DNA of 45,748 nucleotides from Bacillus sp. 123MFChir2 (GTDB lineage: Bacteria > Bacillota > Bacilli > Bacillales > Bacillaceae_G). Of this stretch, positions 7,136 through 41,234 are shown in pieces (within the stretch, counting starts at the first letter, position 1; every line of letters begins with the position of its first letter). The notes beneath the pieces were generated by a model, which was given only the letters and a program-made list of their open reading frames with translations, did not search any database and was not told where the DNA came from. Where the stretch lies: the NCBI RefSeq assembly GCF_000383235.1, contig NZ_KB910960.1, forward strand, positions 1-45,748. The letters run 5' to 3'. Made by a program: the position numbers and the translations under genes.

Positions 7136-7429
7136 CTACATTGTCTCTTTCTCTAAAAGCTGCTTCTTCATCGAGCTATATAAAAATAAACTTTGTGTAA
7201 AGTACATTCCCGCTAACAATAAAGTAATTGACCCGATTAAATACAATTGAGATGACGGTACATAATCAGCTAATACTCCGCCAAGTAAGTATCCTACAGA
7301 AGCCAGTGCACCTTGAATCGCATACACAACTGTTAATGCTCTCCCTAAATACTCCCCATCAATACTTGTTTGCAGTATAGTGGTACATACCTCCAACCTT
7401 TCTTTTCCATTTTTTATAGAATAACACAA
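7136..7429 (-). pseudogene. C-terminal remnant of an MFS efflux transporter
   Basis: 97 codons. From about residue 16 on, TTILQTSIDGEYLGRALTVVYAIQGALASVGYLLGGVLADYV is the region of the last three or four membrane helices of a DHA3-type MFS permease. Ten or so membrane segments that should precede it are absent from the sequence on either frame upstream. The first 15 residues are unrelated junk. This is a decayed gene, not a functional small transporter. It may still read through into the deaminase gene. Confidence 0.75.
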
Positions 7430-7484
7430 ATACGAGGGTTGTTCACTTAATTTTCAGACATTTTTCTTATGTCGAATATCGTCG

Positions 7485-7550
7485 AAGGGTCTTTATTTCA
7501 TGTCGAAGCGCCGATATATCCCAAAAAGCGTTGATAAATCAGCAGCGGAC
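7485..7550. repeat. fragment related to the ATAAAGTG-headed repeat
   Basis: The reverse complement begins ATATATCGGCGCTTCGACA followed by TGAAATAAAG; the same 19 bases followed by CGATATAAAG occur at 16930-16955. It looks like the leading flank of the repeat without its hairpin body. Confidence 0.5.
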
Positions 7551-7551
7551 A

Positions 7552-7583
7552 CAAAAAGGAGCTGCCCTCCATGGCAGCTCCTT
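7552..7583 (-). terminator. terminator of the fad operon
   Basis: GGAGCTGCC (7558-7566) and GGCAGCTCC (7573-7581) form a strong stem, and the minus strand continues with TTTTT, 9-40 bp after the fadE stop. Confidence 0.9.
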
Positions 7584-7591
7584 CATATTTA

Positions 7592-9376
7592 TTAAACTGT
7601 ATAACGCTCATCCTCTAATACTTTCGCTGCAATTTCACGCTTCTTCGGAATAACGTTAATTGGTGTGTGACGTGTTAGCTTACGAAGTGCAGATAACATC
7701 ATGCGTAGCATGTCACCATTTTCAACTGCGATAACTGTTTCTTTTGCGTCTGCTTCGATTTGGTTGAACGCTTCTTGGCAGAATACTTCTGTATAAAGAA
7801 CTTTTTGTTTGTTCTTCTCAAGGCCAGTTACTTTGATTGCTTTTTCTGTACGAAGAACAGCTGATTCCATTGCGTATAAGTTATTTACGATATCTGCAAT
7901 GTTCACAAGAACTTCTTGTTCTTTGTCTAAGGCTTTACCGTATTTTTGAGCAGCTAAACCAGCAATCATTAAGCCGATTTTCTTCGCATTTTTTACTAAA
8001 TGTTTTTGAGCTGCTAATGGCTCATCGCCTACTTCTTCTGGCATCATCATCATTAACTCTTCTTGTAATTTTTGTGCTTCTTGTAGAAGTGGTAATTCAC
8101 CTTTCATTGCTTTACGCAAGAATGTTCCTGGTACGATTAAGCGGTTAATTTCATTCGTACCTTCGAAAATACGGTTAATACGAGAGTCGCGGTACATTCT
8201 TTCAATCTCGTACTCTGCCATAAATCCGTAACCACCATGGATTTGGACACCTTCATCTACTACGTAGTCTAGTACTTCAGAGCCGAATACTTTGTTTAAA
8301 GAACACTCAATTGCATATTCAGCGATAGAAGCTGCAACAGCTTTTCCGTCTTTTACTTCTTCTTCAGACAATGTGCTCATACGACTTTCAAATAAACCAA
8401 CTGTACGATATACAGAGCTTTCTGCTGCATAAATTTTCGCTGCCATATTTGCAAGTTTCTCTTGAATTAATGGGAAGCGAGAAATTGGTTGTTTAAATTG
8501 TTGACGTTGATTTGCATATTGCGCTGAAATTTCTAACGCGCGTTTTGAAGAGCCAACTGTACCAACACCTAATTTATAGCGACCGATATTTAAAATGTTA
8601 AAGGCAATAACATGACCTTTACCAATTTCACCAAGTACATTTTCTTTCGGTACTAATGCATCTTCTAAAATTAATGTACGAGTAGAAGAACATTTAATAC
8701 CCATTTTCTTTTCTTCTGGGCCCGTAGATACACCAGGGTATTCTTTTTCTACGATAAATGCTGTGAAATGTTCGCCGTCTACTTTCGCATATACAACGAA
8801 TACATCAGCGAAAGCAGAGTTTGTAATCCATTGTTTTTCACCGTTTAATACGTAGTGTGTGCCTTCCGCATTTAAGCGAGCCGTTGTTTTTGCGCCTAAC
8901 GCATCAGATCCAGAACCTGGCTCTGTTAATGCGTATGCAGCTAACTTTTCGCCTGTTGCTAACGCAGGTAAATATGTTTTCTTTTGCTCTTCGTTCCCGA
9001 ATAATACGATTGGTAACGATCCAATCCCAACGTGAGCACCGTGCGTAATTGCAAAGCCGCCTGCAAGAGAAAACTTCTCTGAGATTAATGCCGAACTAAT
9101 TTTATCAAGACCAATACCGCCGTATTCTTCTGGTACATCCGCACCTAATAAACCAAGCTCTCCGGCTTCTTTTAATAAGCGAACAGAGCGATCAAACTCA
9201 TGTTTCTCTAAATATTCAAGCTCTGGTAATACTTCATTTACGATAAAATCTTCTGTCGTTTTCGCAATTAATTTATGCTCATCGCTATAATCTTCCGGCG
9301 TAAATACTTGCTCGATTGTAATATCATCAATTAAAAAGCTACCGCCTTTTACTGCACTTCCTACTGTTTTTTCCAT
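7592..9376 (-). CDS. fadE: acyl-CoA dehydrogenase
   Basis: FAD enzyme for the first oxidation step of fatty-acid beta-oxidation (acyl-CoA to trans-2-enoyl-CoA). 594 residues, the long form with an extra C-terminal helical domain of about 180 residues, as in B. subtilis FadE. Seen: YALTEPGSGSDA (flavin and substrate binding), WITNSAFAD, and VQIHGGYGFMAEYEIERMYRDSRI...FEGTNEINR near 385-430. Start chosen at ATG 9376 (MEKTVG), since GGAGG lies eight bases before it; the ATG at 9394 lies upstream of that site. Third gene of the fadN-fadA-fadE operon, separated from fadA by a repeat-bearing gap of 360 bp. Confidence 0.96.
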   Translation of the reverse strand: MEKTVGSAVKGGSFLIDDITIEQVFTPEDYSDEHKLIAKTTEDFIVNEVLPELEYLEKHEFDRSVRLLKEAGELGLLGADVPEEYGGIGLDKISSALISEKFSLAGGFAITHGAHVGIGSLPIVLFGNEEQKKTYLPALATGEKLAAYALTEPGSGSDALGAKTTARLNAEGTHYVLNGEKQWITNSAFADVFVVYAKVDGEHFTAFIVEKEYPGVSTGPEEKKMGIKCSSTRTLILEDALVPKENVLGEIGKGHVIAFNILNIGRYKLGVGTVGSSKRALEISAQYANQRQQFKQPISRFPLIQEKLANMAAKIYAAESSVYRTVGLFESRMSTLSEEEVKDGKAVAASIAEYAIECSLNKVFGSEVLDYVVDEGVQIHGGYGFMAEYEIERMYRDSRINRIFEGTNEINRLIVPGTFLRKAMKGELPLLQEAQKLQEELMMMMPEEVGDEPLAAQKHLVKNAKKIGLMIAGLAAQKYGKALDKEQEVLVNIADIVNNLYAMESAVLRTEKAIKVTGLEKNKQKVLYTEVFCQEAFNQIEADAKETVIAVENGDMLRMMLSALRKLTRHTPINVIPKKREIAAKVLEDERYTV

Positions 9377-20478: not shown

Positions 20479-21789
20479 CTATTTATTTACTTGCTTCTTA
20501 TTTAAATACCAATACACTGGTAATCCTGTTAACACGATAGCAATTGACAAAAAACATCTAGTTGGCTCATTAATAATCGCACTTCCGATTACAAATAGTG
20601 ATCCTAAAATTGCTAATGCTGGTACGATTGGATATAAAGGTACACTATATTCACGTTTTTGTCCTGCATTACGCTTTCTTAAAATGAACACCCCGATAAA
20701 TGTCATAACATAGAAAATATAAATAATAAATACGGAAATCTCAGACAGTTCATTCGGATCACTGATCAACATTAAAATAATACCAAGTAGAATTTCAACA
20801 AAGATTGCGTTTGCTGGCGTTTGAAACTTATCATTAATTTTTGAAATAAATTTTGAGAACGGAAGTTGACCACGCTCCGCCATTGATACTGGAATACGAG
20901 GGAACGTTAAAATTTTTCCATTCAAACATCCGAATATCGAAACGATAACACCTATACTAATCAATTTCCCACCATATTGGCCTAATAACATATCAGCTGC
21001 TGTCGCTGTTGCATTCTCACTAAGAGCAACAATTTGCGGTGCTGGTAAAACATTTAATAATGCCATATTAATTAACACATATGCTGCTGTTACAATAAGA
21101 ATCCCAACTGTCAATGCTTTTGGTAATAACTTTGTTGGATTTTTCATTTCACCGCCGATAGACGCGAGTAGAATCCAGCCATCATATGCAAATAATGTTG
21201 CTAAAATTGCCATCCCCATACTTTGATTTGCAGAATCTGGTACAACAACGTTAAATACATCGCTATTCCCTTTCCAAAATCCCATCACAATAATAAGCAC
21301 AATTGGGATCATTTTCCCGATTGTTGTTATTGTTTGAACAATGCCCCCATATTTTGTTCCTACACTATTTATAACCCCAAGAAATACAACTGTTCCAATC
21401 GCAATTGGTAAATTCCACACTTTATCAATATGGAAAAAGTTTAAAACTAATGAGCTAAAATACAATCCTAATGTTCCAATAATTGCTGGTCCATATACAA
21501 GTGTTTGCATCCATCCAGATAAATAACCCCAAAACTTACCATAAATCTCCTCTAGATACGTATACAAACCACCATTTTTCGGAATTTGCGCTCCGATTTC
21601 TGCAACCGTTAAACCACTTGCTAAGGTTAAAATACCCCCTACTACCCAAGCAAAGATTGCCATGTTAGAACTACCGGCGTAATCCAATACCTTACCTGGT
21701 TTCATAAATACGCCAGACCCGATAATTGTTCCAACAACAATTGATAATGCGACCGTTAGGCCAATTTTGTTTTTGTCATCGTGATGCAT
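20479..21789 (-). CDS. APC-family amino-acid permease (SteT-like), T-box controlled
   Basis: 436-residue cytoplasmic-membrane transporter with about twelve helices. GLTVALSIVVGTIIGSGVFMKPG at 10-32 is the conserved first helix of LAT/APC permeases. Other hallmarks are the IGAQIPKNGGLYTYLEEIYG loop and FPRIPVSMAERGQLP. The closest family I recognise is the SteT serine/threonine exchanger type. Start ATG 21789, ten bases after GGGAGG. The T-box leader just upstream has ACC at the specifier position, which predicts induction when threonyl-tRNA is uncharged, so threonine uptake is the best guess. Confidence 0.88.
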   Translation of the reverse strand: MHHDDKNKIGLTVALSIVVGTIIGSGVFMKPGKVLDYAGSSNMAIFAWVVGGILTLASGLTVAEIGAQIPKNGGLYTYLEEIYGKFWGYLSGWMQTLVYGPAIIGTLGLYFSSLVLNFFHIDKVWNLPIAIGTVVFLGVINSVGTKYGGIVQTITTIGKMIPIVLIIVMGFWKGNSDVFNVVVPDSANQSMGMAILATLFAYDGWILLASIGGEMKNPTKLLPKALTVGILIVTAAYVLINMALLNVLPAPQIVALSENATATAADMLLGQYGGKLISIGVIVSIFGCLNGKILTFPRIPVSMAERGQLPFSKFISKINDKFQTPANAIFVEILLGIILMLISDPNELSEISVFIIYIFYVMTFIGVFILRKRNAGQKREYSVPLYPIVPALAILGSLFVIGSAIINEPTRCFLSIAIVLTGLPVYWYLNKKQVNK

Positions 21790-21830: not shown

Positions 21831-22100
21831 AAAAAACACTCATCCCTAATAAAAGGGACGAGTGTTATATTCGTGGTTCCACCCTTGTTCCAATTGGCAT
21901 GAAGACACAAATCACCAATTGCTCAAGTTTCAGATAACGGCGATTGCCGGCAAACAATTACTAGATATCCGTTCACTGCTGCAGTTCAAAGGTGGTAAAC
22001 TATTCTTTCGTATTAGGAAACTCACAGCCTAAGGCTTCCCTCTCTGAAAATCGTAAAAAATAGATCATGTCCTTATCAGTACTTTTATAATGTCGAATTT
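21831..22100 (-). promoter_or_regulatory. T-box riboswitch leader, predicted threonine specifier
   Basis: On the minus strand: an AAGG/CCTT and a CTATT/AATAG helix enclose an internal loop whose 3' side reads TTTACCA. The trinucleotide before the conserved purine is ACC (21994-21996), a Thr codon. Further along come AGAGA and GGCTG apical motifs, the T-box GGGTGGAACCACG (about 21872-21884), and a terminator with ACACTC...GAGTGT arms (21831-21866) ending in a T run. The T-box itself is certain; the specifier is my reading of the fold. Confidence 0.9.
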
Positions 22101-22404: not shown

Positions 22405-23208
22405 TTATGCCTCTTGCAGTTGTCCATCTTCACGGTCCATTACTTTCTTTAATAACACAGTTTGAATGACAGTAAATAAGTTACTTGTAATCCAGTACAA
22501 GACGAGTCCTGACGGTGCAGCAAATCCCATAAATAAAATCATTGCCGGCATCATAAACTGCTGAACTTTTAATACTTGGCTTTGTTCTCCTGTCATATTA
22601 GATTGAAATACTTTCATCTGCAGGAATGTTGACAGAGCAGCAAGGACAGGTAAAATGTGATACGGATCTGGATGCCCTAAATTTACCCATAAGAAAGAAG
22701 CTGTACGAATCTCTTCCGTATGACTAATGGCATAGTACAATGCTGAGAAAACCGGCATTTGCAACAAGAGTGGTAAACATCCCATCATTGGGTTCACACC
22801 GTTCGTTCTCATTAAAATCATCGTTTCTTGTTGATATTGCTTTTGCTTCTCTGGATTTTTCGTCATATCGCCGTACTTCTCCTTCAATTTCTGAAGTTCC
22901 GGCTGTATTTTCTTTGTTTTTAATTGACTACGATATTGCGTAATCGTCAGTGGCAGTAAGATCGTACGAACTACAATCGTAATAATGATAATGGCGATTC
23001 CAAAGCTATGATTCGGCAAATGGTGTGCCACAAACTGCAACATAACAGAAATTGGATATAAAATATAGTGATTCCAAAATCCAGGACTACTCGCATCAAT
23101 TGGTGCTGCACTTGCACTTGCATTCGCATTTGCATTACCACATCCCGATAAAACAACAACAAGTAATAATGATAAACTTACGAGCCAAGCTCGGTATGAT
23201 TTAAACAT
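22405..23208 (-). CDS. yidC2: membrane protein insertase, YidC2/OxaA2 type
   Basis: 267-residue lipoprotein insertase. Signal peptide with lipobox LSGCG (Cys 23). The YidC core follows: IVVRTILLPLTITQYRSQLKTKKIQPELQKLKEKYGD (with the conserved positive Arg in the groove), NPMMGCLPLLLQMPVFSALYYAI, and the last helices LVLYWITSNLFTVIQT. It inserts small membrane proteins alone or with SecYEG. The SD GGAGG (23216-23220) is partly locked in a perfect hairpin with the end of the upstream 94-codon ORF, so expression is probably controlled by translation of that ORF, as for B. subtilis YidC2 and MifM. Which of the two Bacillus YidC proteins it equals is inferred from that leader. Confidence 0.93.
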   Translation of the reverse strand: MFKSYRAWLVSLSLLLVVVLSGCGNANANASASAAPIDASSPGFWNHYILYPISVMLQFVAHHLPNHSFGIAIIIITIVVRTILLPLTITQYRSQLKTKKIQPELQKLKEKYGDMTKNPEKQKQYQQETMILMRTNGVNPMMGCLPLLLQMPVFSALYYAISHTEEIRTASFLWVNLGHPDPYHILPVLAALSTFLQMKVFQSNMTGEQSQVLKVQQFMMPAMILFMGFAAPSGLVLYWITSNLFTVIQTVLLKKVMDREDGQLQEA

Positions 23209-23215
23209 ATATATT

Positions 23216-23251
23216 CCTCCAATGTTTCATAATTCGTTAGCGAAACATTGG
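23216..23251 (-). promoter_or_regulatory. translational-control hairpin masking the yidC2 SD
   Basis: On the minus strand CCAATGTTTC (23242-23251) and GAAACATTGG (23219-23228) are perfectly complementary with a 13-base loop. The left arm lies within the last four sense codons (P M F R) of the upstream ORF; its stop codon is in the loop. The right arm supplies the first two bases of GGAGG. A ribosome halted near the end of the ORF would break the stem and free the SD. Confidence 0.85.
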
Positions 23252-23521
23252 TATATACGGACCTACATCATCACTCTCTCCGCTTGCTTCTTGCCTGCGG
23301 ACTGAGCGGGCCATTCCATGTTTATAAAAGACAGAGAAAAACGAAGTATTCCCTATATGCTTCTCGCACGTTTCAACACATGCAAAAGCCTTCTGTCTCC
23401 CTCTATATGTTTGTTGGCGTACAAAACGCGAAACATTAGTGAGAAACAAAACTTCTAATAAACAAAGTGCCGTTGTTACAACAGATATATATAACATTGC
23501 ATCTTGCAACAGAAATTCCAT
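23237..23521 (-). CDS. putative MifM-like leader peptide / translational sensor for yidC2
   Basis: 94-residue protein, 28 bp upstream of yidC2. One membrane segment at about 8-29 (AMLYISVVTTALCLLEVLFLTN region), then a very basic tail (RFVRQQTYRGRQK, KHGMARSVRRQ) and an acidic-plus-proline end: GESDDVGPYIPMFR. ATG 23521 follows AAGGATG at nine bases. The last codons make the left arm of the SD-masking hairpin. This is the gene order and hairpin logic of B. subtilis mifM-yidC2, where stalling of MifM reports lack of insertase. I see no convincing similarity to the MifM arrest sequence as I remember it, so the arrest itself is unproven. It could instead be simple translational coupling. Confidence 0.65.
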   Translation of the reverse strand: MEFLLQDAMLYISVVTTALCLLEVLFLTNVSRFVRQQTYRGRQKAFACVETCEKHIGNTSFFSVFYKHGMARSVRRQEASGESDDVGPYIPMFR

Positions 23522-23707
23522 CTCTTCACATCCTTATGACAGGATTATATCACACCACTTCAACATGTAAATTCCTTATATTTGACATATTCATGTTTTT
23601 CTACATACGCTTAAATTGTAAAAATTTTATAAAATTTTTGCAATTTAATAAAACTATTGTCAGTTGGTGAAAAAAGCATTATTCTCTTCTTGTAAACAAA
23701 AAAGAAT

Positions 23708-24652: not shown

Positions 24653-25055
24653 TTTCACTTTATGCTATCGTTGGATAACGTACGCCAAAATTCAAAATAT
24701 CTGATAATTATTTTTATTCGAATCTGAAACATGTTATACTATGTGTATATCATAAAAGTAAGTAATACACATATATAAATCCATTTTAATTTTTCGACAT
24801 ATAAGTAGCTGTTATGCAGAGTGCAACACGACCTGTACTCGCTTGCTCCCTTTGTTTTAAAACATCGCATCTGGCAGAAATAGGCACTGACCGCTTCTAT
24901 GCATGGCCAGTTGCTCTCTCCCACCGAAAAAGAAGGGGTTTTATGTTAATTTTTCAATTTGCATCTATATATAGTATCTTATTTCATTCTTATATAAATC
25001 TAGATTTTGATTTATATATTGGTTCTCCTATTCAAATGATAAAGGAGTAAAACGT
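24653..25055. other. intergenic region dominated by a bcr1-like repeat
   Basis: No gene. A full-length bcr1-like repeat occupies 24775-24973. AAAGGAG at about 25043 is the ribosome binding site of the next gene. Confidence 0.6.
24775..24973 (+). repeat. bcr1-like repeat, full length
   Basis: Starts after TATATAAATCC with TTTTTCGACATATAAGTAGC; then TGCTCCCTTTGTTTTAAAAC, GGCACTGACCGCTTCTATGC, ATGGCCAGTTGCTCTC and GGGGTTTTATGTTAATTTTT; ends near CAATTTGCATCTATATATA. The size and distribution fit bcr1 of the B. cereus group as I remember it. Confidence 0.8.
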
Positions 25056-25507: not shown

Positions 25508-25690
25508 TATATATCCATCTTAATTTCCCAGCGTATAGATTGCGGCTATACAAAAGAACCTGCACTTGCTTTTTCACTTTGTTTTACCTCGCATGTGGCA
25601 GGAAAGGGCACTGACCGCTTCTATGCATGGTCAGATGCTCTCTCCCCTCTAAAAAAAGGGGTTTTATGTCGTTTTTTTACTTATATATTT
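25508..25690 (+). repeat. bcr1-like repeat, full length
   Basis: CTCGCATGTGGCAGGAAAGG, GCACTGACCGCTTCTATGCA, TGGTCAGATGCTCTCTCCCC and AAAGGGGTTTTATGTCG. The 5' third is more diverged than in the 24775-24973 copy. Confidence 0.78.
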
Positions 25691-29012: not shown

Positions 29013-30653
29013 TCATATACCATTGAAAGACTCATTCAGTTTTTCAACTTCTTCCGCAATTTTCTTCACATCAATCCGTTCAAATAACGGCGATACATTT
29101 AAAATACGAACTGGATTCTCACTCGTATAGTTCCATCCATTCTTTGAAACTCCTAACATTTGCTGCACTTGCTCGGACGAAAATGGAAGAAACGGTGCTA
29201 ATACTTGCGCAAAATTCACGATGAAGTGAATACAGTTTCTCATCGTGTCATCACACGCCGTCTTGTCTTCTTTTATTTGTTTCCATGGCTGCCTTTCATC
29301 GAAATATTTATTTGCATAGCGAACTTGCTCAAAAATCGTCTCCAACGCTTGTTTAAAATGCGCTTTTTCAATGAATTCTCCTATTTCAACGTATAATCCC
29401 TCTAGCTTTTCTTCAATCTCCTCATTCATTTGGCCAGTCGGTACAGTGTTCTCATAATATTTTTCAAGAAATTTTAGCGTTCTATTTACAAAATTCCCAT
29501 ATGCCCCTAACAATTCGCTATTATGACTATAAATAAATTCCCGCCATGAAAAATCCGTATCCCGATTTTCAGGTGCATTTACAGTTAAAAAATAGCGGAT
29601 CGAATCAGGGTGATATTCCTTCAAAATTTCAGGAACCCAAACAGCCCAGTTTTTACTTGTCGATAACTTTCTTTTTTCGATCGTTAAATATTCATTCGAA
29701 ACAATATATTTAGGCAATGCTTCTACTTGTATCCCCTGCAAAATAGCTGGCCAAATGATTGTATGAAACGGAATATTATCTTTGCCATGCACATAATACG
29801 TCCGTGTCTCTTCTTGCCAAAATGGTGAATCATCACTGTTTGTTTCTTGCGCCCATTGCTTACTTGCTGAATAATACCCAGACACAGCCTCAATCCACAC
29901 GTACACCTTCTTATCTTCGTATCCAGAAACAGGAACGCTCACGCCAATTGATAAATCTCTTGAAACAGCACGGTCTTGTAAACCCTCTTGTAAATAACGT
30001 AGCGTTAATTGCACAGCGTTCTCGCGCCACGTACCGCTTTGCTTTACTGTTTCTACATATTCTTCTAGCTTCTGCTGTAATGACTTTATTGCAAAATAAA
30101 AATGCTCTGTCTCCTTAATTGTTGGTGCAGTGCCGCACAGTTTACATGTTTTCTCCAATAAATCTAGCGGATCTAAAATAGCAGAACACGCATCGCACTG
30201 ATCACCACGTGCACCCGCACCGCAGTGCGGACAAACGCCTTCCACATACCGATCCGGTAAAAATTGGACACAAGTCTCGCAGTATGTTTGCTCTGCTGTC
30301 TTTTTATAAATAAATCCATTTTCTAAAAGCTCTAAGAAAATCTTCTGAACGACTTGATGGTGAGCAACAGAGTCAGTACGAGCATAATAATCATATGAAA
30401 ACCCAAGCGCCTGAAAACATCGTTCAAATTCTTCGTGATAGCGATCCGCAATTGCTTTAACACTTACCCCTTCCTGCTTAGCCCGAATCGTAATCGGTGT
30501 ACCGTTACAATCACTTCCTGATACATATAACACATTGTTCCCTTTTAACCGAGAATAACGTGCTAAAATATCTCCTGGCAGTAAACTAGCGATATGCCCA
30601 AGATGCAACGATCCATTTGCATATGGCCAAGCGCCTCCAATAAAAATATTCAT
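29013..30653 (-). CDS. metG: methionyl-tRNA synthetase, second (metG1/MRS2-like) type
   Basis: Charges tRNA-Met. 546 residues, shorter than the main Bacillus MetRS because the C-terminal tRNA-binding dimerisation domain is missing. HLGH (17-20) is the HIGH motif. Two zinc knuckles: C125/C128 with C141/C144, and C153/C156 with C170/C173. The KMSKS loop reads KLSTS (329-333), so the second Lys is Thr. This fits the duplicate, antibiotic-tolerant MetRS type described in B. anthracis. Start ATG 30653 behind AAAGGAGGA. It has its own T-box leader, so it is made when Met-tRNA is low. Confidence 0.93.
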
Positions 30654-30675: not shown

Positions 30676-31000
30676 ATAAAAGCCCCGCCCTTATCTTTTA
30701 AAAAGATAAGGACGAGGCTGTATATACAGTCGTGGTACCACCTTATTTCATCAATTGCTCACACAATTGACCTTTGCAAATACGGAGCAATCATTACTCG
30801 TATACTGTGACTTTGATAACGAGAGTCAAGGCTCGCCGCCGCCTACTATTATCAAGTGATAAGTTCAGGACGAAGCTCAGAGGCCATTGTTCAAATGATC
30901 ATTCTTGCTTCTTTTCAGCTCCCGAAGCTCTCTGGAAAGAATGGGGGCATTCTACTTTTCCTCTTCAATGCTTTTCGTATGTAATTTAAATTGTATATAT
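30676..31000 (-). promoter_or_regulatory. T-box riboswitch leader of metG, predicted Met specifier
   Basis: On the minus strand: AGAGAGCTTCGG and GGGAGCTG apical motifs, then GAATGATCATTTGAAC with ATG (30900-30902) at the expected specifier position. The T-box TAAGGTGGTACCACG (about 30731-30745) is followed by a terminator with AGCCTCGTCCTTATC and GATAAGGGCGGGGCT arms (30681-30719) and a T run. An overlapping ATC is also possible from the fold; the downstream gene favours ATG. Confidence 0.88.
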
Positions 31001-32516: not shown

Positions 32517-34211
32517 ATGAAGTACGTTAGCATTCGTAAGAAACTCATCTTTATGCTACTAAGCGTTTGCTTATTATTTAGCATTGCTTTAGCAGTTATT
32601 TTATTTTTCTCTACTAGTCAAGCACACCAAGCGGAAATATTACAATCTGATGTTTCGCGCAAAGCAACTATCTTAAAAGAACGCGGGGATTTATTCCAAG
32701 CTCAAGTCTCTGGCTTACATGACTATTTATTGGCGCACAATGAAAAAGATCTAGCAAAGTTTAATAAGGCAGGAAAACAATTAGCCGATACACGCGAAAA
32801 AATAACAAGCGATACAAGTCTCCCACAAGAAATGAAAGATACCATTAACATGGGAGGAAAATGGCGTAGTGTAATGGATGACCAAGTTCTTCCTCTTACA
32901 AGAGAAGGAAAATGGGAGGAAGCAAGCAAAATTTCCTTGCAGCAAAACGAAATTGGCGATACCATTTTAGCTAATTTCAAAAAATATACAGATCAAGAAA
33001 ACGCAAAGCGGGATGAGTTAATAAATCAGATAAAGCACTCATCAACCGTTATGCAGTTTACTATTTTCTTGTCCCTTATCCTATGTACAATAATAGCTCT
33101 TATACTAGCATGGTGGTTATCTGGTAAACTTGTAAAACCTATTCGAGAGATTGATTCTAAATTAAAAGAACTAGCATCTCAAGACGGTGACTTAACAGTT
33201 CGCCTTCCTATACGTAGTAATGATGAGATTGGCGACATTGCCGTATCATTTAATCAAATGCTTTCCAATTTACAAACTATTATTAACCAGGTGAAAAAAA
33301 CATCTTCGGACGTGAAAACAGCTTCTGAAAGAATGTTAACAGAAACGAAACATTCGATAGGCGCAACAACTCAAATTCAAACAACAATGCGGGCGTTAGA
33401 TCATAGCATTCACTCTCAAGTTTCTAGTATTGAAGAGGGCTCTACCGCAATGGATGATATGACCGTTAGTGTACAACGCATTGCTGAATCCGCTTCTACT
33501 GTTGCAGAACTTGCTGTGACAACTTCAGAACAAGCTGATGTTGGTAGTCACGTAATCGAACAATCTATTACACAAATGAGTGCGATCCACAAAGCTGTTC
33601 ACGCAACATCGGAAGTTGTTGAGCACCTGATTTCTCATACAAAGTCGATTGATTACGCTGTCCAAGCAATCTCTAATATTGCAGAACAAACGAACCTTCT
33701 TGCATTAAATGCTTCCATTGAGGCCGCCCGCGCTGGGGAACATGGAAAAGGATTTGCGGTTGTCGCAGATGAAGTGCGAAAACTTGCCGAACAATCAAAA
33801 ACAGCTGCAACAAATATTAATCAGTTGCTTCATCATATTCAAAATGATACGAGTGCTGCAAATACGATGATGCTGCAAGGTCAAATAGAAGCTGCTGAAG
33901 GAATTGCAATTATGCAAAAAGCTGGTTCTTCTTTTACAACCATTGTCAAACAAATTAATGAGGTATCCTCACAAATGCAGGAAGTTTCAGCAACTGCTGA
34001 GGAAATGGCTGCGAGTGCAGAAGAAATGAATACCTCTCTGGGCAATATCGCTTCTATCTCTCATGAAGTAGCAGCAGAAACTACCCAAACCGCAAGCTCT
34101 GCCGGTAAGCAAGTAAACGTAATAAACGGCATGTCTATTATGTCTGAACAGATGAAACACGTTGTAGAAGAACTTGAGTCGCTCGTTTCTCGTTTTAAAA
34201 CTGAGTCTTAA
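32517..34211 (+). CDS. methyl-accepting chemotaxis protein, 4HB type (array copy 1)
   Basis: 564-residue chemoreceptor. Membrane segment 1 about 10-31, four-helix-bundle sensor 35-180, membrane segment 2 about 184-206, HAMP 207-260, signalling domain with [35 protein letters not shown]. No periplasmic cofactor or CACHE motif is visible. Most diverged of the four paralogues in its sensor. Start ATG 32517; the ribosome binding site (AAAGGACGG) is weaker than in the others, and its upstream region is a bcr1-like repeat. Confidence 0.93.
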
Positions 34212-34285
34212 ACAAGATTGTATAAAAGCGACTTATACACAGTGGAGGAAAGTAAATTCTTATAAACGAATAATAAAATATTTTC

Positions 34286-34314
34286 TCACTTTCTATACTA
34301 TAGTCTGCTATAAT
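34286..34314 (+). promoter_or_regulatory. promoter of array copy 2
   Basis: TCACTT (34286-34291), 17-bp spacer, TATAAT (34309-34314). Copies 3 and 4 have TTACTT-17-TATAAT at 37299-37327 and 39433-39461, so the element has been duplicated along with the genes. Experimental start points are unknown. Confidence 0.65.
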
Positions 34315-34326
34315 TTCTATAGGAAC

Positions 34327-34370
34327 AAAAAGTGCTTTATTTCGATGTCACTCGAAATAAAGCACTTTTT
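34327..34370 (+). terminator. strong hairpin with T run in the leader of array copy 2
   Basis: AAAAAGTGCTTTATTTCGA (34327-34345) and its exact complement (34352-34370) with a six-base loop, ending TTTTT. It lies between the promoter above and the gene start at 34426, and copies 3 and 4 lack it. It is either an attenuator or the terminator of the preceding gene placed in the wrong spot. Confidence 0.8.
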
Positions 34371-34425
34371 AATCATAATATTAATTAATCTTTATAAACA
34401 AATTACAAAAGGAGGATTTATCATT

Positions 34426-36120
34426 ATGAAATACGTGAGCATTCGTAAAAAAATGATGTTTATGATGGGAACAATTTGTGCTTTATTTGGTATTGCATTA
34501 GCTTTTATCTTTTTCTTTGCAAAAAGTGAAAACAATGTAGCAATAACATTACAAAAAGATGTTGCACCAAGAACAACGCTTTTAATAGAACGTAATAAGG
34601 CGTATCAAGTACAACTTTCGGCTTTTCGAGGTTATCTATTAACACATGATTCTGCCGAATTAGATAAATTTTATGAGATGGATAAACAATTAGAAGATAC
34701 AAAAGGACAGCTATTAAACGCCCCAAGTATTTCGCAGGATCTCAAAAATACAATGGAGTCGGGAGCACAATGGCGTCATTTTGTTATTGAAAAGGTACTT
34801 CCTCTTACTAAAGAAGACAAATGGGACGAAGCAGCAAAAATTACCGCTGAACAAAATGGAACTATTTTTAAAGTAATCGGGGATTTCGAAAAATATAGCA
34901 ATGCCGAAAATAAAAAGTGTGATCAACTTATTGAGCAAGTAAAAAATTCATCCTCACTTGTTAAATCTATTGTTCTTCTCTCTCTTATCCTTTGTACAAT
35001 TATTGGCATTATGGTAGCCTGGTGGTTCTCTAGTAAACTTGTGAAACCAATTCAGGAAATTGATACAAAGCTCAAAGAACTCGCTTCTCAAGATGGGGAT
35101 TTAACAGCACGTTTATCTGTAGAAAGCAATGATGAAATTGGTGCCATTGCCGCTTCCTTTAATCAAATGTTAGAAAACCTCCAATATATCATTGGACAAG
35201 TACAAAAAACATCGTTAAATGTACGAAGTGCTTCTGACAACATACTAAAAGAAACAAAGATTTCCATGAACGCAACAACTGATATCCAAATGACAATGTC
35301 TGAATTAGAACATAATATTCAATCACAAGTTTCTAGTATCGAAGAAAGTTCTACTGCAATGGATGACATGGCAATCGGTGTACAACGTATCGCCCAATCT
35401 GCTTCCGCCATTGCGGAACTGACTGTAACGACTTCTGACCGTGCAAGTGAGGGTAGTCAAGTAATCGAAAAATCAATTACGCAGATGACAACCATTCATA
35501 ACGCAGTGGATGCTACATCTCAAGTTGTCGAACGTCTTATCACTCATACAGAGCATATCGATACAGCTGTTCAATCGATCTCTAATATCGCGGAACAAAC
35601 AAATCTTCTTGCGTTAAATGCTTCTATTGAAGCAGCACGTGCCGGGGAACAAGGCAAAGGGTTTGCCGTTGTTGCAGATGAAGTGCGAAAGCTTGCAGAA
35701 CAATCAAAAGCTGCTGCAACAAGCATTAACCAATTACTTCACCATATTCAGACTGATACGAAGACTGCAAATTCGATGATGGAACAAGGTCAAGTAGAAG
35801 CTGCTCAAGGAATTACAGTGATTCGCGAGGCTGGTTCTTCCTTCGCAACCATTGTCGAACAAATCAATGAAGTATCTTCACAAATGCAAGAAGTTTCAGC
35901 AACTGCGGAAGAGATGGCTGCAAGTGCAGAAGAAATGAATGCTTCTCTTAATAATATTGCTTCTATCTCAGGTGAAGTAGCAGCAGAAACAACACAAACT
36001 GCAAACTCTGCTGGAGAGCAAGTAAACATCATGAAAGACATGTCTGTTAAATCTGAGGAAATGAAACATGTTGTAGAAGAACTCGACACACTCGTTTCTC
36101 GTTTTAAAACAGAATCTTAA
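34426..36120 (+). CDS. methyl-accepting chemotaxis protein, 4HB type (array copy 2)
   Basis: 564 residues starting [20 protein letters not shown]. Architecture as for copy 1: membrane helices about 10-31 and 184-206, HAMP with [15 protein letters not shown], and signalling tip [20 protein letters not shown]. Start ATG 34426 behind AAAGGAGGA; an in-frame ATG 252 bp upstream overlaps copy 1 and has no SD. The cytoplasmic half is nearly identical to copies 3 and 4, while the sensor halves differ, so the proteins probably share kinase partners and differ in ligand. Confidence 0.94.
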
Positions 36121-36165
36121 ACAGGTTTATCAGAATCGAAAATCAAATGTTTGATCTTCACATGA

Positions 36166-36504
36166 TTACGAAGGTATTGAAACAATCTCATAATCGTAAG
36201 ATAGGTTATGTGCGATAAGATGAAATGCCACTTTCGATAACTTATTCACACATGCAACGGATGCAACTTTATGACATTTGTTATAAGGTTGCATTTTTAA
36301 TTTATCGTAGTATTCCACGAAATGATTGTTCCTAAAGAAGCTTTGGTGAATCATACCTTGCATCATAAAATACAACATTTGTCGTAAATGTCTATTGCCA
36401 CACTTAGTAATTTTATTCTTGTAAAACAATATGCTAAATTGAAAACATTTTATATCGAAGAGTGATTTCCACGTTTTAAAGATGATCTCTATTTGCCAAC
36501 GCAA
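36166..36504 (-). pseudogene. chimeric remnant of two transposase genes
   Basis: 112-codon frame. Residues 1-20, [18 protein letters not shown] plus two, are the (L)[13 protein letters not shown] motif near the C-terminus of IS4/IS231-type transposases. From about residue 34 the protein switches to the C-terminal part of IS110-type transposases: [51 protein letters not shown]. Neither has its catalytic domain. The two fragments are joined in frame by chance after successive deletions. Confidence 0.8.
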
Positions 36505-36588
36505 AGTGTATAATTGATGTATCTGGTACTAAGAATAAATCTATACTTTATACAAATATCGTAGATGTAATTTTTAATATTTCGTTTC

Positions 36589-36610
36589 TTAAAGCTATAT
36601 ATAGCTTTAA
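36589..36610. repeat. 22-bp perfect palindrome
   Basis: TTAAAGCTATA followed directly by TATAGCTTTAA. It lies about 85 bp from the transposase remnant; no gene is next to it. It might be an insertion-sequence scar or an orphan operator. Confidence 0.5.
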
Positions 36611-36684
36611 ACGTGACTACTCAGCTATACCTTTTAGAAATTTAGAAAAGGGTATGATTCTAGTGAAGATGTGTCTCTCTATTA

Positions 36685-36880
36685 CTTATAAATTCATTTT
36701 TTGGCATATAGACTGCTGTCATGCAAACAGGGCAGGGGCCTGCACTGTTTGGCTACTTTTGTTTTCAAACCTTGTACGTGGCAGGAAAGGCCCTAACCCC
36801 TTTTCCATGCACAACTAGATGCTCTCCCCTCCTCTAAAAGAAAGGGGTTTTTATGTCGTTTTTTAACTTGGATATATATA
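36685..36880 (+). repeat. bcr1-like repeat, full length
   Basis: TTTTTTGGCATATAGACTGC, CCTTGTACGTGGCAGGAAAG, GCCCTAACCCC and AAGAAAGGGGTTTTTATGTC. Confidence 0.78.
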
Positions 36881-37159
36881 AGAATGTAAAAAACTCATAT
36901 CGTTATTAAAACATTATCTTTTTGGTATGTAAATCCCAAATTCTTATTATAAGTATATAAAAATTTCCATAGTAATATTTTACAAACAAGAAATAATTAT
37001 ATTAAAAAAACAATAAACATTTTCTTTTCATAAATTCTAATCATTTTAACCTAATATCCCCACAAGAAATAGCATAATTTTAATTTAATGCGAAAAAATA
37101 GCGCACAAAAAATGTTTATAGTATAACAAAACAACATTTTACATGCCATTCACCTATAT

Positions 37160-37185
37160 TTTCGTATGCAAAATTGCATACGAAA
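37160..37185. promoter_or_regulatory. 26-bp palindrome in gene-free DNA
   Basis: TTTCGTATGCAA, AA, TTGCATACGAAA: perfect 12-bp arms. It resembles an operator of a GntR- or TetR-class protein. No gene starts within 200 bp; the next is array copy 3 at 37409. Confidence 0.55.
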
Positions 37186-37298
37186 CAAAGAAAAATTACA
37201 GTAAAATAAGAATATCTTTAAACGATTTACTATAAACTAACTTTCGATATTAATATATGAAAATAAAAATTTTATTTTTTATAAATAATATTATCTCC

Positions 37299-37327
37299 TT
37301 ACTTTACATACCAAACTTTTCTATAAT
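37299..37327 (+). promoter_or_regulatory. promoter of array copy 3
   Basis: TTACTT (37299-37304), 17-bp spacer, TATAAT (37322-37327), aligned with those of copies 2 and 4. Confidence 0.62.
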
Positions 37328-37408
37328 TTTTAATGTCAGGTAATAATACCAAATCATTAAATATTAATTAATCCTAATAAATTAATGTTAAAAGGAGGAT
37401 TTATCATT

Positions 37409-39103
37409 ATGAAATACGTAAGCATTCGTAAAAAAATGATGTTCATGATAGGTACAATTTGTGCTTTATTTGGCATCGCATTAGCTTTTATTATTTTCTT
37501 TGCCAAACTCGAAAATAATATAGCCGTAACATTACAAAAAGATGTTGCACCAAAAACAAACCTTTTAATAGAACGCAATGAGGCATATCAAGTGCAACTT
37601 TCAGCCTTTCGAGCTTATCTATTACAACGTGATCCTGCCGAATTAGATAAGTTTTACGAGTTAGATAAACACTTAGAAGATACAAAAGGAAAACTATTAA
37701 ACGACCCAAATATTTCACAAGATATCAAAAATACAATGGAGTTAGGAGGACAGTGGCGTAAGTTTATTAATGAAAAGATAATTCCTCTTACTAAAGAAGG
37801 AAAATGGGACGAGGCAATACAACTTACCGCTGAACAAAACAAAACTGTTTATACAGTAAGCCGTGATTTCACCAAATATAGCAATGACGAAAATACGAAG
37901 TGTGATCAGCTTATCAAACAAGTAAAAGACTCATCCTCACTCGTTAAATCTATTGTCCTTATTTCTCTTATCCTTTGTACAATTATTGGTATTATCTTAG
38001 CCTGGTGGTTCTCTGGCAAAATCGTGAAACCAATTCAGGAAATTGATATAAAGCTAAAAGAACTTGCTTCTCAAGACGGCGATTTAACAGCAAGATTAGA
38101 TGTAAAAAGTAATGACGAAATTGGCAGAATTGCCGCTTCCTTTAATAAAATGCTAGAAAATCTACAATATATCATTGGGCAAGTGCAAAAAACATCGTTA
38201 AATGTACGAAGTGCTTCTGACAATATACTAATAGAAACGAATATCTCTATGGATGCAACAACCGCTATCCAAACGACGATGTCCGAATTAGAACATCATA
38301 TTCAATCACAAGTTTCTAGTATCGAAGAAAGCTCTACTGCAATGGATGATATGGCAGTTAGTGTACAGCGTATTGCCCAGTCTGCTTCCGCCGTTGCTGA
38401 ACTGACTGTAACGACTTCTGATCGAGCAAACGAAGGTAGTCGAGTAATCGAAGAATCCATTACACAGATGACAACCATTCATAACGCAGTGAATGCTACA
38501 TCTCAAGTTGTCGAACGTCTAATCACTCATACAGAGTATATCGATACAGCTGTCCAATCTATCTCTAATATTGCGGAACAAACAAATCTTCTTGCATTAA
38601 ATGCTTCCATTGAAGCGGCACGTGCCGGAGAACAAGGAAAAGGATTTGCCGTTGTTGCAGATGAAGTACGAAAACTCGCCGAACAATCCAAAGCTGCTGC
38701 AACAGGCATTAATCAATTACTTCACCATATTCAGGCTGATACGAAAGCTGCAAATTCGATGATGGAACAAGGTCAAGTAGAAGCTGCTCAAGGAATTACA
38801 GTCATTCGTGAAGCTGGTTCTTCCTTCACAACCATTGTCGAACAAATCAGTGAAGTATCTTCACAAATGCAAGAAGTTTCAGCGACTGCTGAAGAGATGG
38901 CTGCAAGTGCAGAAGAAATGAATGCTTCTCTTAATAATATTGCTTCTATCTCAGGTGAAGTAGCAGCAAAAACAACACAAACTGCAAACTCTGCTGGAGA
39001 ACAAGTAAACATCATGAAAGACATGTCTAGTAAATCTGAGGAAATGAAACATGTTGTAGAAGAACTCGACACACTCGTTTCTCGTTTTAAAACAGACTCT
39101 TAA
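37409..39103 (+). CDS. methyl-accepting chemotaxis protein, 4HB type (array copy 3)
   Basis: 564 residues, same architecture as copies 2 and 4; ATG 37409 behind AAAAGGAGGA (an ATG at 37385 lies before the SD). Its sensor is like copy 4's in several stretches ([33 protein letters not shown]) and like copy 2's in others ([17 protein letters not shown]), and its C-terminus ([19 protein letters not shown]) follows copy 2. Its transcript must cross an inverted bcr1-like repeat before reaching the terminator at 39317-39354. Confidence 0.94.
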
Positions 39104-39108
39104 ACATA

Positions 39109-39308
39109 GGTTTATATATAGATGCAAATTGGAAAACTAACATAAAAACCCTTTTCTTTTTCGATGGGCGAGAGCAACTGGCCATATATAGAGGCGGTCA
39201 GTTCCTTTTCCTGCCACGTGCAAAGTTTAAAACAAAGATAGACAGCAAGTAGCGTCCATGTTTTGTTCTGCATAGCAGCGACTTATATGTATTGATTTAT
39301 ATAAATTA
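39109..39308 (-). repeat. bcr1-like repeat, inverted
   Basis: Read on the minus strand: ACATATAAGTCGCTGCTATG, CTTTGTTTTAAACTTTGCAC, GTGGCAGGAAAAGGAACTGA, CCGCCTCTATATATGGCCAG, GGGTTTTTATGTTAGTTTTC. It is the only clear copy in this orientation in the window. Confidence 0.8.
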
Positions 39309-39316
39309 AAACTCAA

Positions 39317-39354
39317 AAAACGAACTGCCCCTAAATTATTTTGGGCAGTTTTTT
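39317..39354 (+). terminator. terminator of array copy 3
   Basis: AACTGCCC (39323-39330) and GGGCAGTT (39343-39350) with an A-rich 5' flank and a T run after. Confidence 0.85.
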
Positions 39355-39432
39355 ATATTCTCAAAACCCTTGGTATCTCTAGGCTGAAGGTTATACAATT
39401 CCTTCGTAATAAATCAACGAAAAAATTTCCCC

Positions 39433-39461
39433 TTACTTTCCATGATACAGTCTGCTATAAT
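39433..39461 (+). promoter_or_regulatory. promoter of array copy 4
   Basis: TTACTT (39433-39438), 17-bp spacer ending TCTGC, TATAAT (39456-39461). The same TCTGCTATAAT occurs before copy 2. Confidence 0.65.
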
Positions 39462-39542
39462 CCCTAATATCAGGTCATAATATCAAATCATAATATTAAT
39501 TAATTTGTATAAATTAATTAATAAAAGGAGGATTTTATACTT

Positions 39543-41234
39543 ATGAAATACATGAGCATTCGTAAAAAAATGATGTTTATGGTAGGTACAATTTGCGCTT
39601 TATTTGGCATCGCATTAGCTTTTATTTTTTTCTTTGCCAAACTCGAAAATAATATAGCCGTGACATTACAAAAAGATGTTGCACCAAGAGCAACACTTTT
39701 ACTAGAACACGGTAATACATATCAAATACAACTTTTAGCCTTTCAAGATTATTTATTAACACATGACCCTGCCGAACTAGATGAATTTTATGAAATGGAC
39801 AAACAATTAGAAGATACAAAAGGAAAACTACTAAACGATCCAAAGACTCCTCAAAATATAAAAAATACAACGGAGTTAGGAGCACAGTGGCGTCAGTTTA
39901 TTAATGAAAGAATAATTCCTCTTACTAAAGAAGGAAAATGGGACGAGGCAATAAAAGTTGCCGCTGAACAAAATAAAACTGTTCATACATTAGTCCATGA
40001 TTTCACCAAATATAGCAATAATGAAAATGCGAGGTGTGATCAGCTCGTCCAACAAATAAAAGATTCATCCTCACTCGTTAAATCTATTATCTTTATTTCT
40101 CTTATCCTTTGTACAATTATTGCCATCATCACGGCTTGGTGGTTCTCTGGTAAACTTGTGAAACCAATTCAAGAAATTAATACAAAGCTCAAAGAACTTG
40201 CTTCTCAAAATGGGGACTTAACAGTACGATTAGATGTAAACAGTAATGATGAAATTGGTGCCATTGCTGCTTCCTTTAATCAAATGTTAAAGAACCTCCA
40301 ATATATCATTGGACAAGTACAGCAAACATCGTTAAATGTACGTAATGCTTCTGACAATATACTAACAGAAACGAATATCTCTATGGATGCAACAACCGCT
40401 ATCCAAACGAAGATGTCCGAATTAGAACATCATATTCAATCACAAGTTTCTAGTATCGAAGAGAGTTCTACTGCAATGGACGATATGGCAGTTAGTGTAC
40501 AGCGTATTGCCCAATCTGCTTCCGCCATTGCTGAACTGACGGTAACGACTTCTGACCGTGCAAGTGAAGGTAGTCAAGTAATCAAAAAATCAATTACACA
40601 GATGACAACAATTCATGATGCAGTGAATGCTACATCTCAAGTTGTCGAACGTCTAATCACTCATACGAAACATATTGATACCGCTGTCCAATCGATCTCT
40701 AATATTGCAGAACAAACGAATCTTCTTGCATTAAATGCTTCCATTGAAGCAGCGCGAGCTGGAGAGCAAGGAAAAGGATTTGCCGTTGTTGCAGATGAAG
40801 TGCGAAAGCTTGCAGAACAATCAAAAGCTGCTGCAACAGGCATTAATCAGTTGCTTCATCATATTCAGGATGATACGAAAACTGCAAATTCGATGATGGA
40901 ACAAGGTCAAGTAGAAGCTGCTCAAGGAATTACAGTGATTCGCGAGGCTGGTTCTTCTTTCGCAACCATTGTCGAACAAATTAATGCAGTATCTTCACAA
41001 ATGCAAGAAGTTTCAGCGACTGCTGAAGAGATGGCTGCAAGTGCCGAACAAATGAACGCTTCTCTTAATAATATTTCTTCTATCTCAGGTGAAGTAGCAG
41101 CAGAAACAACACAAACTGCAAACTCTGCTGGAGAACAAGTAAATATCATAAAAAACGTGTCTGTGACATCTGAGCAGATGAAACACGTTGTAGAAGAACT
41201 TGACACACTCGTTTCTCGTTTTAAAACAAAGTAG
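39543..41234 (+). CDS. methyl-accepting chemotaxis protein, 4HB type (array copy 4)
   Basis: 563 residues, [20 protein letters not shown] at the start; ATG 39543 behind AAAAGGAGGA. Membrane helices, HAMP (here [10 protein letters not shown]) and signalling domain as in its siblings. The last part, [23 protein letters not shown], matches copy 1 at [11 protein letters not shown] and copies 2-3 at DTLVSRFKT, which hints at recombination. Own terminator follows. Confidence 0.94.

What the first reader, a model, noticed from the sequence alone, without database searches (positions are those of the whole stretch)
23216..23521. Candidate force-sensing arrest peptide controlling yidC2 (MifM-like system in a B. 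cereus-group genome)
Seen: a 94-codon ORF with one N-terminal membrane segment ends 28 bp before yidC2. Its final codons (CCA ATG TTT CGC) are the left arm of a perfect 10-bp stem whose right arm runs into the yidC2 SD GGAGG, and the stop codon lies in the loop. Known: in B. subtilis, MifM is a YidC substrate whose C-terminal arrest opens a hairpin that hides the yidC2 SD. Inference: the same circuit with an unrelated tail (ESDDVGPYIPMFR), i.e. a possibly new arrest sequence.
Basis: partly seen in the sequence, partly recalled or inferred. Interest (0 to 1): 0.92.

Follow-up and report, generated by a model that had tools for sequence, protein, structure and literature searches.

The report
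MifM-like leader peptide controlling yidC
A small membrane-anchored peptide gene sits just before a membrane-protein insertase gene, and its conserved tail plus an RNA hairpin over the insertase's start signal look like a sensor that raises insertase production when membrane insertion falters; the design is known, but the tail and the insertase branch differ from the known example.

Summary
A 94-codon ORF ends 28 nt before a yidC gene, and its last codons form a 10-bp stem whose other arm runs into the yidC Shine-Dalgarno. Seven relatives of the peptide were aligned with it (one Priestia plasmid, five genomes of the Priestia aryabhattai family, one other genome of the order). In these eight the stem is kept while its letters change (5 of 12 pairs compensated). 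The tail just before the stem, R-[QK]-E-[AS]-x-G-E-x-D-D-x-G-P, is conserved as protein, and the membrane segment ends 58-59 residues before its Gly in 8 of 8. A force-released arrest peptide would need this; arrest itself is inferred. It works like MifM, but profile comparison with Bacillus MifM finds nothing, and the six MifM tunnel-contact residues are absent in my register. The YidC is not the usual YidC2: it joins a separate branch (100/99), and three related genomes checked also carry a DEED-type leader before another yidC. One relative precedes a MutS-domain protein near Tn7-like genes. Verdict: new variant of a known kind, perhaps a further class of YidC-linked leader.

The parts
23544..23571 (-). 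Promoter-like site TTTACA-16-TGnTATAAT for the leader-yidC operon (prediction)
   Evidence: 11 of 12 consensus; the scan as a whole is not far above chance; a TGnTAnnAT element sits upstream of the leader start in 8 of 8 members
23531..23535 (-). SD (AAGGA) of the leader ORF
   Evidence: sequence
23237..23521 (-). Leader peptide ORF, 94 codons
   Evidence: relatives; alignment A3
23441..23497 (-). Hydrophobic core, residues 9-27; acidic N-flank, basic C-flank (predicted N-out/C-in membrane segment)
23258..23302 (-). Conserved tail, codons 74-88 (V-R-R-Q-E-A-S-G-E-S-D-D-V-G-P): candidate arrest sequence
23242..23251 (-). Left arm of the SD-sequestering stem (codons 91-94)
23219..23228 (-). Right arm of the stem, running into the SD
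23216..23220 (-). SD (GGAGG) of yidC
   Evidence: sequence
22405..23208 (-). YidC/Oxa1-family insertase, 267 aa, in a separate YidC branch with the relatives' YidCs
   Evidence: Pfam PF02096 E 2.3e-53; trees

Best explanation
The ORF is a leader peptide that works like MifM. It is translated from a transcript that also carries yidC. Left alone, the mRNA folds so that the last codons of the leader pair with the stretch running into the yidC SD, and yidC is poorly translated. The peptide starts with a predicted N-out/C-in membrane segment, a type of substrate that YidC inserts. When the ribosome reaches the tail RQEAxGExDDxGP (codons 76-88), the nascent tail holds it; from there the ribosome covers part of the left arm and exposes the SD. 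If insertion works, the membrane segment is pulled into the membrane and the pull over the fixed distance frees the ribosome; if insertion is short, the stall lasts and more YidC is made. Shown here: ORF, stem and its covariation, protein-level conservation of the tail, fixed spacing, one common branch of the YidCs that bear this leader. Inferred: co-transcription, stalling, its site, release by insertion, and the effect on yidC.
For: Stem kept with compensatory changes in the 8 members. Tail codons 74-88: 68 of 90 codon pairs among four lineages give the same residue, against 80 of 180 (residues 1-30) and 70 of 222 (31-72); 31 of the 68 differ synonymously, so the constraint is on the protein and lies outside the stem. 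The distance from the hydrophobic core to Gly87 is 59 in 7 and 58 in 1 of 8 although the stretch between is the least conserved part; the published MifM median is 54, narrow (PMC10987492, section 12). A ribosome with codon 87 or 88 in the P site would cover 4 or 7 of the 10 left-arm bases (the +15 edge is recalled). Other leader-yidC pairs of the order often have stems onto the SD: 19 of 29 beat 95% of shuffles. Window YidC and five relatives' YidCs form one branch, 100/99, also with either Priestia-family subgroup left out.
Against: No stalling, expression or YidC-dependence data were found for any member. The 8 sequences are at most four independent lineages. The mid-tunnel residues that B. 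subtilis MifM needs are absent in register. A stall at codon 85 or 86, the places that correspond to the first two MifM stall sites in my register, would leave all 10 or 9 of the left-arm bases free, and at codon 87 six. In G014 the leader is intact although yidC is lost after about 24 codons, and in G179 it precedes a MutS-domain protein, so its tie to yidC is not absolute. The number of further pair types was not above shuffles (299 of 500). Window YidC is barely more like its branch mates (47%) than like other YidCs (48%), so the branch rests on the tree.
Confidence: 0.73

Rival explanations
1. Plain translational coupling: any ribosome finishing the leader melts the hairpin, and yidC output simply follows leader translation. 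The peptide sequence does not matter and nothing is sensed.
For: The stop codon lies in the loop, so a terminating ribosome should cover the left arm (inference).
Against: The tail is conserved as protein with free synonymous change, outside the stem; the hydrophobic segment and a 58-59-residue spacing are kept.
Confidence: 0.14
2. The leader is a functional small membrane protein, a partner or regulator of this YidC, and the hairpin only sets the ratio.
For: It goes with one YidC branch and parts of its length are conserved.
Against: The most conserved part is a short tail right next to the stem; residues 1-30 and 31-72 diverge to 44% and 32% identity. The leader persists without a full yidC in G014 and with a non-YidC gene in G179.
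Confidence: 0.07
3. It is simply MifM: an ordinary, diverged member of the MifM family, perhaps already inside the published cluster of 631 sequences. (This overlaps with the best explanation; the odds are not exclusive.)
For: Same size and layout, an acidic pair before a Gly; weak above-chance profile likeness to other yidC leaders of the order. The published cluster was filtered on an acidic stretch at residues 70-100 (PMC10987492 section 19), which this tail should pass.
Against: No profile likeness to Bacillus MifM; the six MifM contact residues are missing in register; three related genomes checked carry, besides this leader, a DEED-type leader before another yidC.
Confidence: 0.3

Closest known systems
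MifM-yidC2 (yqjG) of Bacillus subtilis
   Same: Leader ORF of about 95 codons before a yidC; N-terminal membrane segment; acidic residues near codons 85-89. In the 10 MifM genes recovered by motif the longest stem onto the SD starts in the last codons in 7, and beyond the stop in 3.
   Different: No R-I-xx-W-I...M-N contacts in register; RQEAxGExDDxGP is conserved instead; the stem takes in only the first two SD bases plus bases upstream; YidC from another branch; no profile likeness.
DEED- and RKxP-type leaders before yidC in other genomes of the order
   Same: Similar layout; weak tail likeness above column shuffles; many with stems onto the SD.
   Different: Tails such as QRKIPxxER...DEEG or YRKxP...DEED rather than RQEAxGExDDxGP; a DEED-type leader coexists with this one in the three related genomes checked.
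CliM (Clostridia) and ApcA (actinobacteria)
   Same: Arrest peptides before yidC; CliM also uses a stem over the downstream start (PMC13183943, passages).
   Different: Neither KYxIW nor RAPG is in the tail (read from the sequence).
SecM/VemP/RAPP-type secretion monitors
   Same: Leader arrest opening an SD hairpin (SecM, VemP; PMC10987492, passages).
   Different: No RAPP/RAGP-like motif; a membrane segment with short fixed spacing; target is yidC.

Membership tests
MifM family | Short ORF immediately upstream of a yidC gene, same strand | tested here: met
   28-nt gap
MifM family | N-terminal membrane segment about 54 residues before the arrest site | tested here: met
   58-59 to the candidate site in 8 of 8; published median 54. 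The site itself is assumed
MifM family | Stem that hides the downstream SD | tested here: met
   (two SD bases in the stem)
MifM family | Acidic cluster at the arrest site (DEED 86-89 in B. subtilis) | tested here: inconclusive
   ExDD at 82-85, its E and DD invariant in 8 of 8, but only three acidic residues
MifM family | Contact residues R69, I70, W73, I74, M80, N81 (PMC4423224, passages) | tested here: not met
   with D84-D85 set against E88-D89 these places hold F65, Y66, G69, M70, R76, Q77; the register is my choice
MifM family | Sequence homology to MifM | tested here: not met
   hhalign A3 vs A6 E 0.39, 58 of 150 column shuffles as high
Regulatory arrest peptides of the Sec/YidC pathway | C-terminal sequence conserved among homologues (published search criterion) | tested here: met
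Regulatory arrest peptides of the Sec/YidC pathway | Translation arrest in vitro or in vivo | not testable with these tools
   needs toeprinting or a reporter
Regulatory arrest peptides of the Sec/YidC pathway | Release on membrane insertion and control of the target gene | not testable with these tools
   needs reporter strains
RAPP/RAGP-type, ApcA, CliM | RAPP-like or KYxIW motif near the C-terminus | tested here: not met
   tail read and in the 8 members

The most novel reading that the evidence does not exclude
This is a separate, mobile class of YidC-linked arrest peptide with its own arrest sequence (RQEAxGExDDxGP), inherited as a cassette with a distinct YidC branch and running beside a DEED-type leader circuit in the same cell. 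The leader-plus-hairpin part can move to other genes: in genome G179 it stands before a MutS-domain protein with a hydrophobic N-terminus, next to Tn7-like tns genes, which would put a non-YidC gene under an insertion sensor.
Probability: 0.33. Interest if true: 0.7.

Novelty: new variant of a known kind. Interest (0 to 1): 0.52.

Why it matters
A 2026 paper counts three arrest peptides found upstream of yidC (MifM, ApcA, CliM; PMC13183943, passages). A further class with another tail, a constant 58-59-residue distance and a rebuilt stem would give a clean test of which parts of a force-sensing arrest peptide are fixed (spacing, hairpin) and which can be swapped (arrest sequence). Two different leader-yidC pairs in one genome also ask what a third YidC is for.

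Tried and rejected
Chance hairpin: rejected. Intrinsic terminator: the right arm is followed by AGGAATATAT, not a T-run, and the scan lists none at this hairpin. Known families: no hit for the window peptide in Pfam, NCBIfam, PADLOC or PHROGs, none for its stretch in Rfam that is not chance-like, and none in the PDB better than E 0.45; among the other members one matched an NCBIfam model at E 0.062, taken as chance. A profile of other yidC leaders found no MifM chain in the PDB.

Searches that gave little: YidC as query in genome contigs found no relative; viral contigs, 18 stretches matched a pattern and none was confirmed; phages none; class sample 1 of 299, only G001 again. In the family of G179, 3 of 193 had a match at E 0.001 or better; two of these (G497, G518; E 6e-4 and 9e-4, two stops inside) were dropped without further reading. 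The profile of other yidC leaders did not pick out the window ORF (9th of 242 window ORFs, E 1.4), and the profile of this family placed only 2 of 18 other leaders (E 0.003, 0.02) above the best of 360 shuffled sequences (E 0.057). My first structure string was three columns off and was replaced. A first tree kept 12 of the sequences and missed the window because of a strict filter; it was replaced. In that tree L020, whose leader is like that of L019, was labelled as having none and was left out of alignment A4; the labels 'mifM' for L005, L073 and L074 rest on their DEED tail and place, not on a homology test. Attempts to place the organism led nowhere.

Members: A3 holds 8 sequences; the N-terminal remnant in G012 (L012) and the duplicate L007 were left out. 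The 30 yidC loci fetched are the best matches to the window YidC out of 397 genomes, not a random sample.

Full report
1. The observation. On the minus strand the 94-codon ORF 23237-23521 ends 28 nt before a 267-codon gene 22405-23208 that is a YidC/Oxa1 insertase (Pfam PF02096, E 2.3e-53). Its last codons form the left arm (23251-23242) of a perfect 10-bp stem; the right arm (23228-23219) runs into the SD GGAGG (23220-23216), and the stop codon lies in the loop. The region folds with z -3.5, 0 of 200 shuffles as good. A Watson-Crick stem of at least 9 bp onto this SD appeared in 0 of 5000 shuffles, and 1 of 34 SD-like-plus-start sites in the window, this one, has a stem above 5 bp. An 11-of-12 promoter-like site lies just upstream of the ORF, in a scan that found 12 sites against 8.3 expected.

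2. Relatives. No curated family matches the window peptide. One plasmid record of 72,556 encodes a relative over 99% of its length, 37% identical, E 2e-8, right before a yidC (Priestia aryabhattai pG5MAi6_1). A genome-contig scan gave one locus, again P. aryabhattai. Whole-genome searches gave 6 of 16 genomes in that family, one of them (G012) with only the N-terminal part; 7 of 397 in the order, the same six plus G179; 1 of 61 in the genus of G179; 3 of 193 in its family, two of them doubtful; and 1 of 299 in the class, G001 again. The B. cereus-group label stays untested.

3. The stem is under selection. In an alignment of eight hairpins (A5) the 12 pairs are formed in 99% of 96 cells; 5 pairs show changes on both sides (shuffled mean 2.0; 4 of 500 shuffles as high), in 10 cells (mean 2.2; 0 of 500), and the covariation score is above all 500 shuffles; slid versions reach at most 59% of cells. 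The number of further pair types was not above shuffles (299 of 500). The rows are at most four lineages (window; plasmid, G001, G014 and G016; G002 and G003; G179), so the events are few but clear.

4. The tail is under selection as protein. Among four representatives, codons 74-88 give the same residue in 68 of 90 codon pairs, against 80 of 180 for residues 1-30 and 70 of 222 for 31-72; 31 of the 68 differ synonymously. Between pG5MAi6 and G003 the tail shows 6 synonymous and 0 non-synonymous differences. V74, R76, E78, G81, E82, D84, D85, G87, P88 and F93 are invariant in the eight members. Codons 74-88 lie before the stem (codons 91-94), so the hairpin does not explain them.

5. Spacing and topology. 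The N-flank of the hydrophobic core carries charge -2 in 8 of 8, the C-flank 0 to +4, which fits N-out/C-in. From the end of the core to Gly87 there are 59 residues in 7 and 58 in 1 of 8, although this stretch is the least conserved and carries small insertions and deletions. For type-I membrane segments the distance is reported to be crucial for release, and MifM has a narrow distribution with median 54 (PMC10987492, section 12 read).

6. Mechanism. With codon 87 or 88 in the P site and about 15 nt covered downstream (recalled figure), 6 or 3 of the 10 left-arm bases remain outside the ribosome; at codon 85 or 86 the arm stays (almost) free. So a ribosome held at 87-88 or beyond should open the stem, and one held earlier should not. 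I conclude that a MifM-like feedback loop is most likely. Stalling, its site, release by insertion and the effect on yidC are inferred.

7. Is it MifM? A pattern built from published MifM residues (PMC4423224, passages) matched 11 of 397 genomes; 10 have a MifM-like ORF just before a downstream gene that falls among YidCs in the tree, and the match in G056 gave no such ORF. With the acidic pairs set in register, none of the six contact residues is present in the window peptide. Profile comparison with these MifMs is no better than column shuffles (58 of 150 as high). With 18 other yidC leaders it is weak (hhalign probability 5%, E 0.0077) but above all 150 shuffles; those leaders against MifM gave 1 of 150. 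Of 29 other leader-yidC pairs (19 others and the 10 MifMs) the longest stem onto the SD, G-U allowed, was 7 to 16 bp; it beat 95% of shuffles in 19 of 29 and started beyond the leader's stop in 3, all MifMs; of the 10 MifMs only 3 beat 95% of shuffles. So the layout is frequent in the order, while tails differ between lineages. It works like MifM; filing it as MifM fails on contact residues and on homology.

8. The YidC branch. In a tree of 46 YidCs the window protein and five relatives with this leader form one branch (100/99), apart from SpoIIIJ, from the YidCs behind MifM, and from the other YidCs. The result holds with either subgroup of relatives left out (100/98 and 100/99). Against this, the window sits on a long branch and its raw identity to branch mates (47%) is no higher than to some others (48%). 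In three genomes checked (G001, G016, G003) a DEED-type leader precedes another yidC, so two leader-yidC pairs coexist.

9. Departures. In G179 the same leader and a hairpin precede a 539-residue protein with a hydrophobic N-terminus (read from the sequence) and MutS domain V (E 6.6e-25), after genes that match TnsA, a Mu-type transposase, a TniB-like ATPase and TnsD. A 73%-identical protein in G406 has no such leader. The G179 contig ends soon after, so the context is incomplete. In G014 the leader is intact but the yidC reading stops matching after about 24 codons. In G012 only the first part of the leader remains, and two YidC matches were listed against three in G001 and G016.

10. Novelty. 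Searches for MifM with Bacillus cereus, and for MifM and YidC with Bacillus anthracis, found no paper; in two wider listings (30 of 77 and 10 of 51 papers shown) I saw no title on this leader. The 2024 survey names no such motif in the sections that I read (6, 12, 19), but its cluster of 631 MifM-like sequences may contain members, and its supplements could not be read. The 2026 CliM paper counts three yidC-linked arrest peptides (passages). The 2009 MifM paper was not held. Of the other papers cited or opened (PMC7897499, PMC6037786, PMC4423224) I saw passages only. I therefore rate this a new variant of a known kind.

Noticed in passing
L013/L058 (genome G179), leader at L058 7038-7325, MutS-domain gene 7352-8971: The leader and its hairpin precede a MutS-domain V protein with a hydrophobic N-terminus, downstream of Tn7-like genes (TnsA, Mu-type transposase, TniB-like ATPase, TnsD); the 73%-identical gene in G406 lacks the leader.
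   Followed up: partly
L009 (genome G014) and L012/L061 (genome G012): Leader intact but yidC lost after about 24 codons (G014); only the N-terminal part of the leader left (G012). The cassette seems to be lost easily.
   Followed up: partly
window 21851-22088 (-) and 30705-30977 (-): Two T-box leaders above the gathering score: one before a permease-like gene (20479-21789), one before a methionyl-tRNA synthetase-like gene (29013-30653). Gene names from reading; part of the second matches metG of a Lysinibacillus plasmid.
   Followed up: no
window 24824-24959 and 25551-25682: A repeat of about 135 nt in two copies, pieces 78-84% identical, with no Rfam match at the gathering score; nature unknown.
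   Followed up: no
window 32517-41234 (+): Four similar chemoreceptor-like ORFs in a row, an apparent local duplication; name from reading, no family search run.
   Followed up: no
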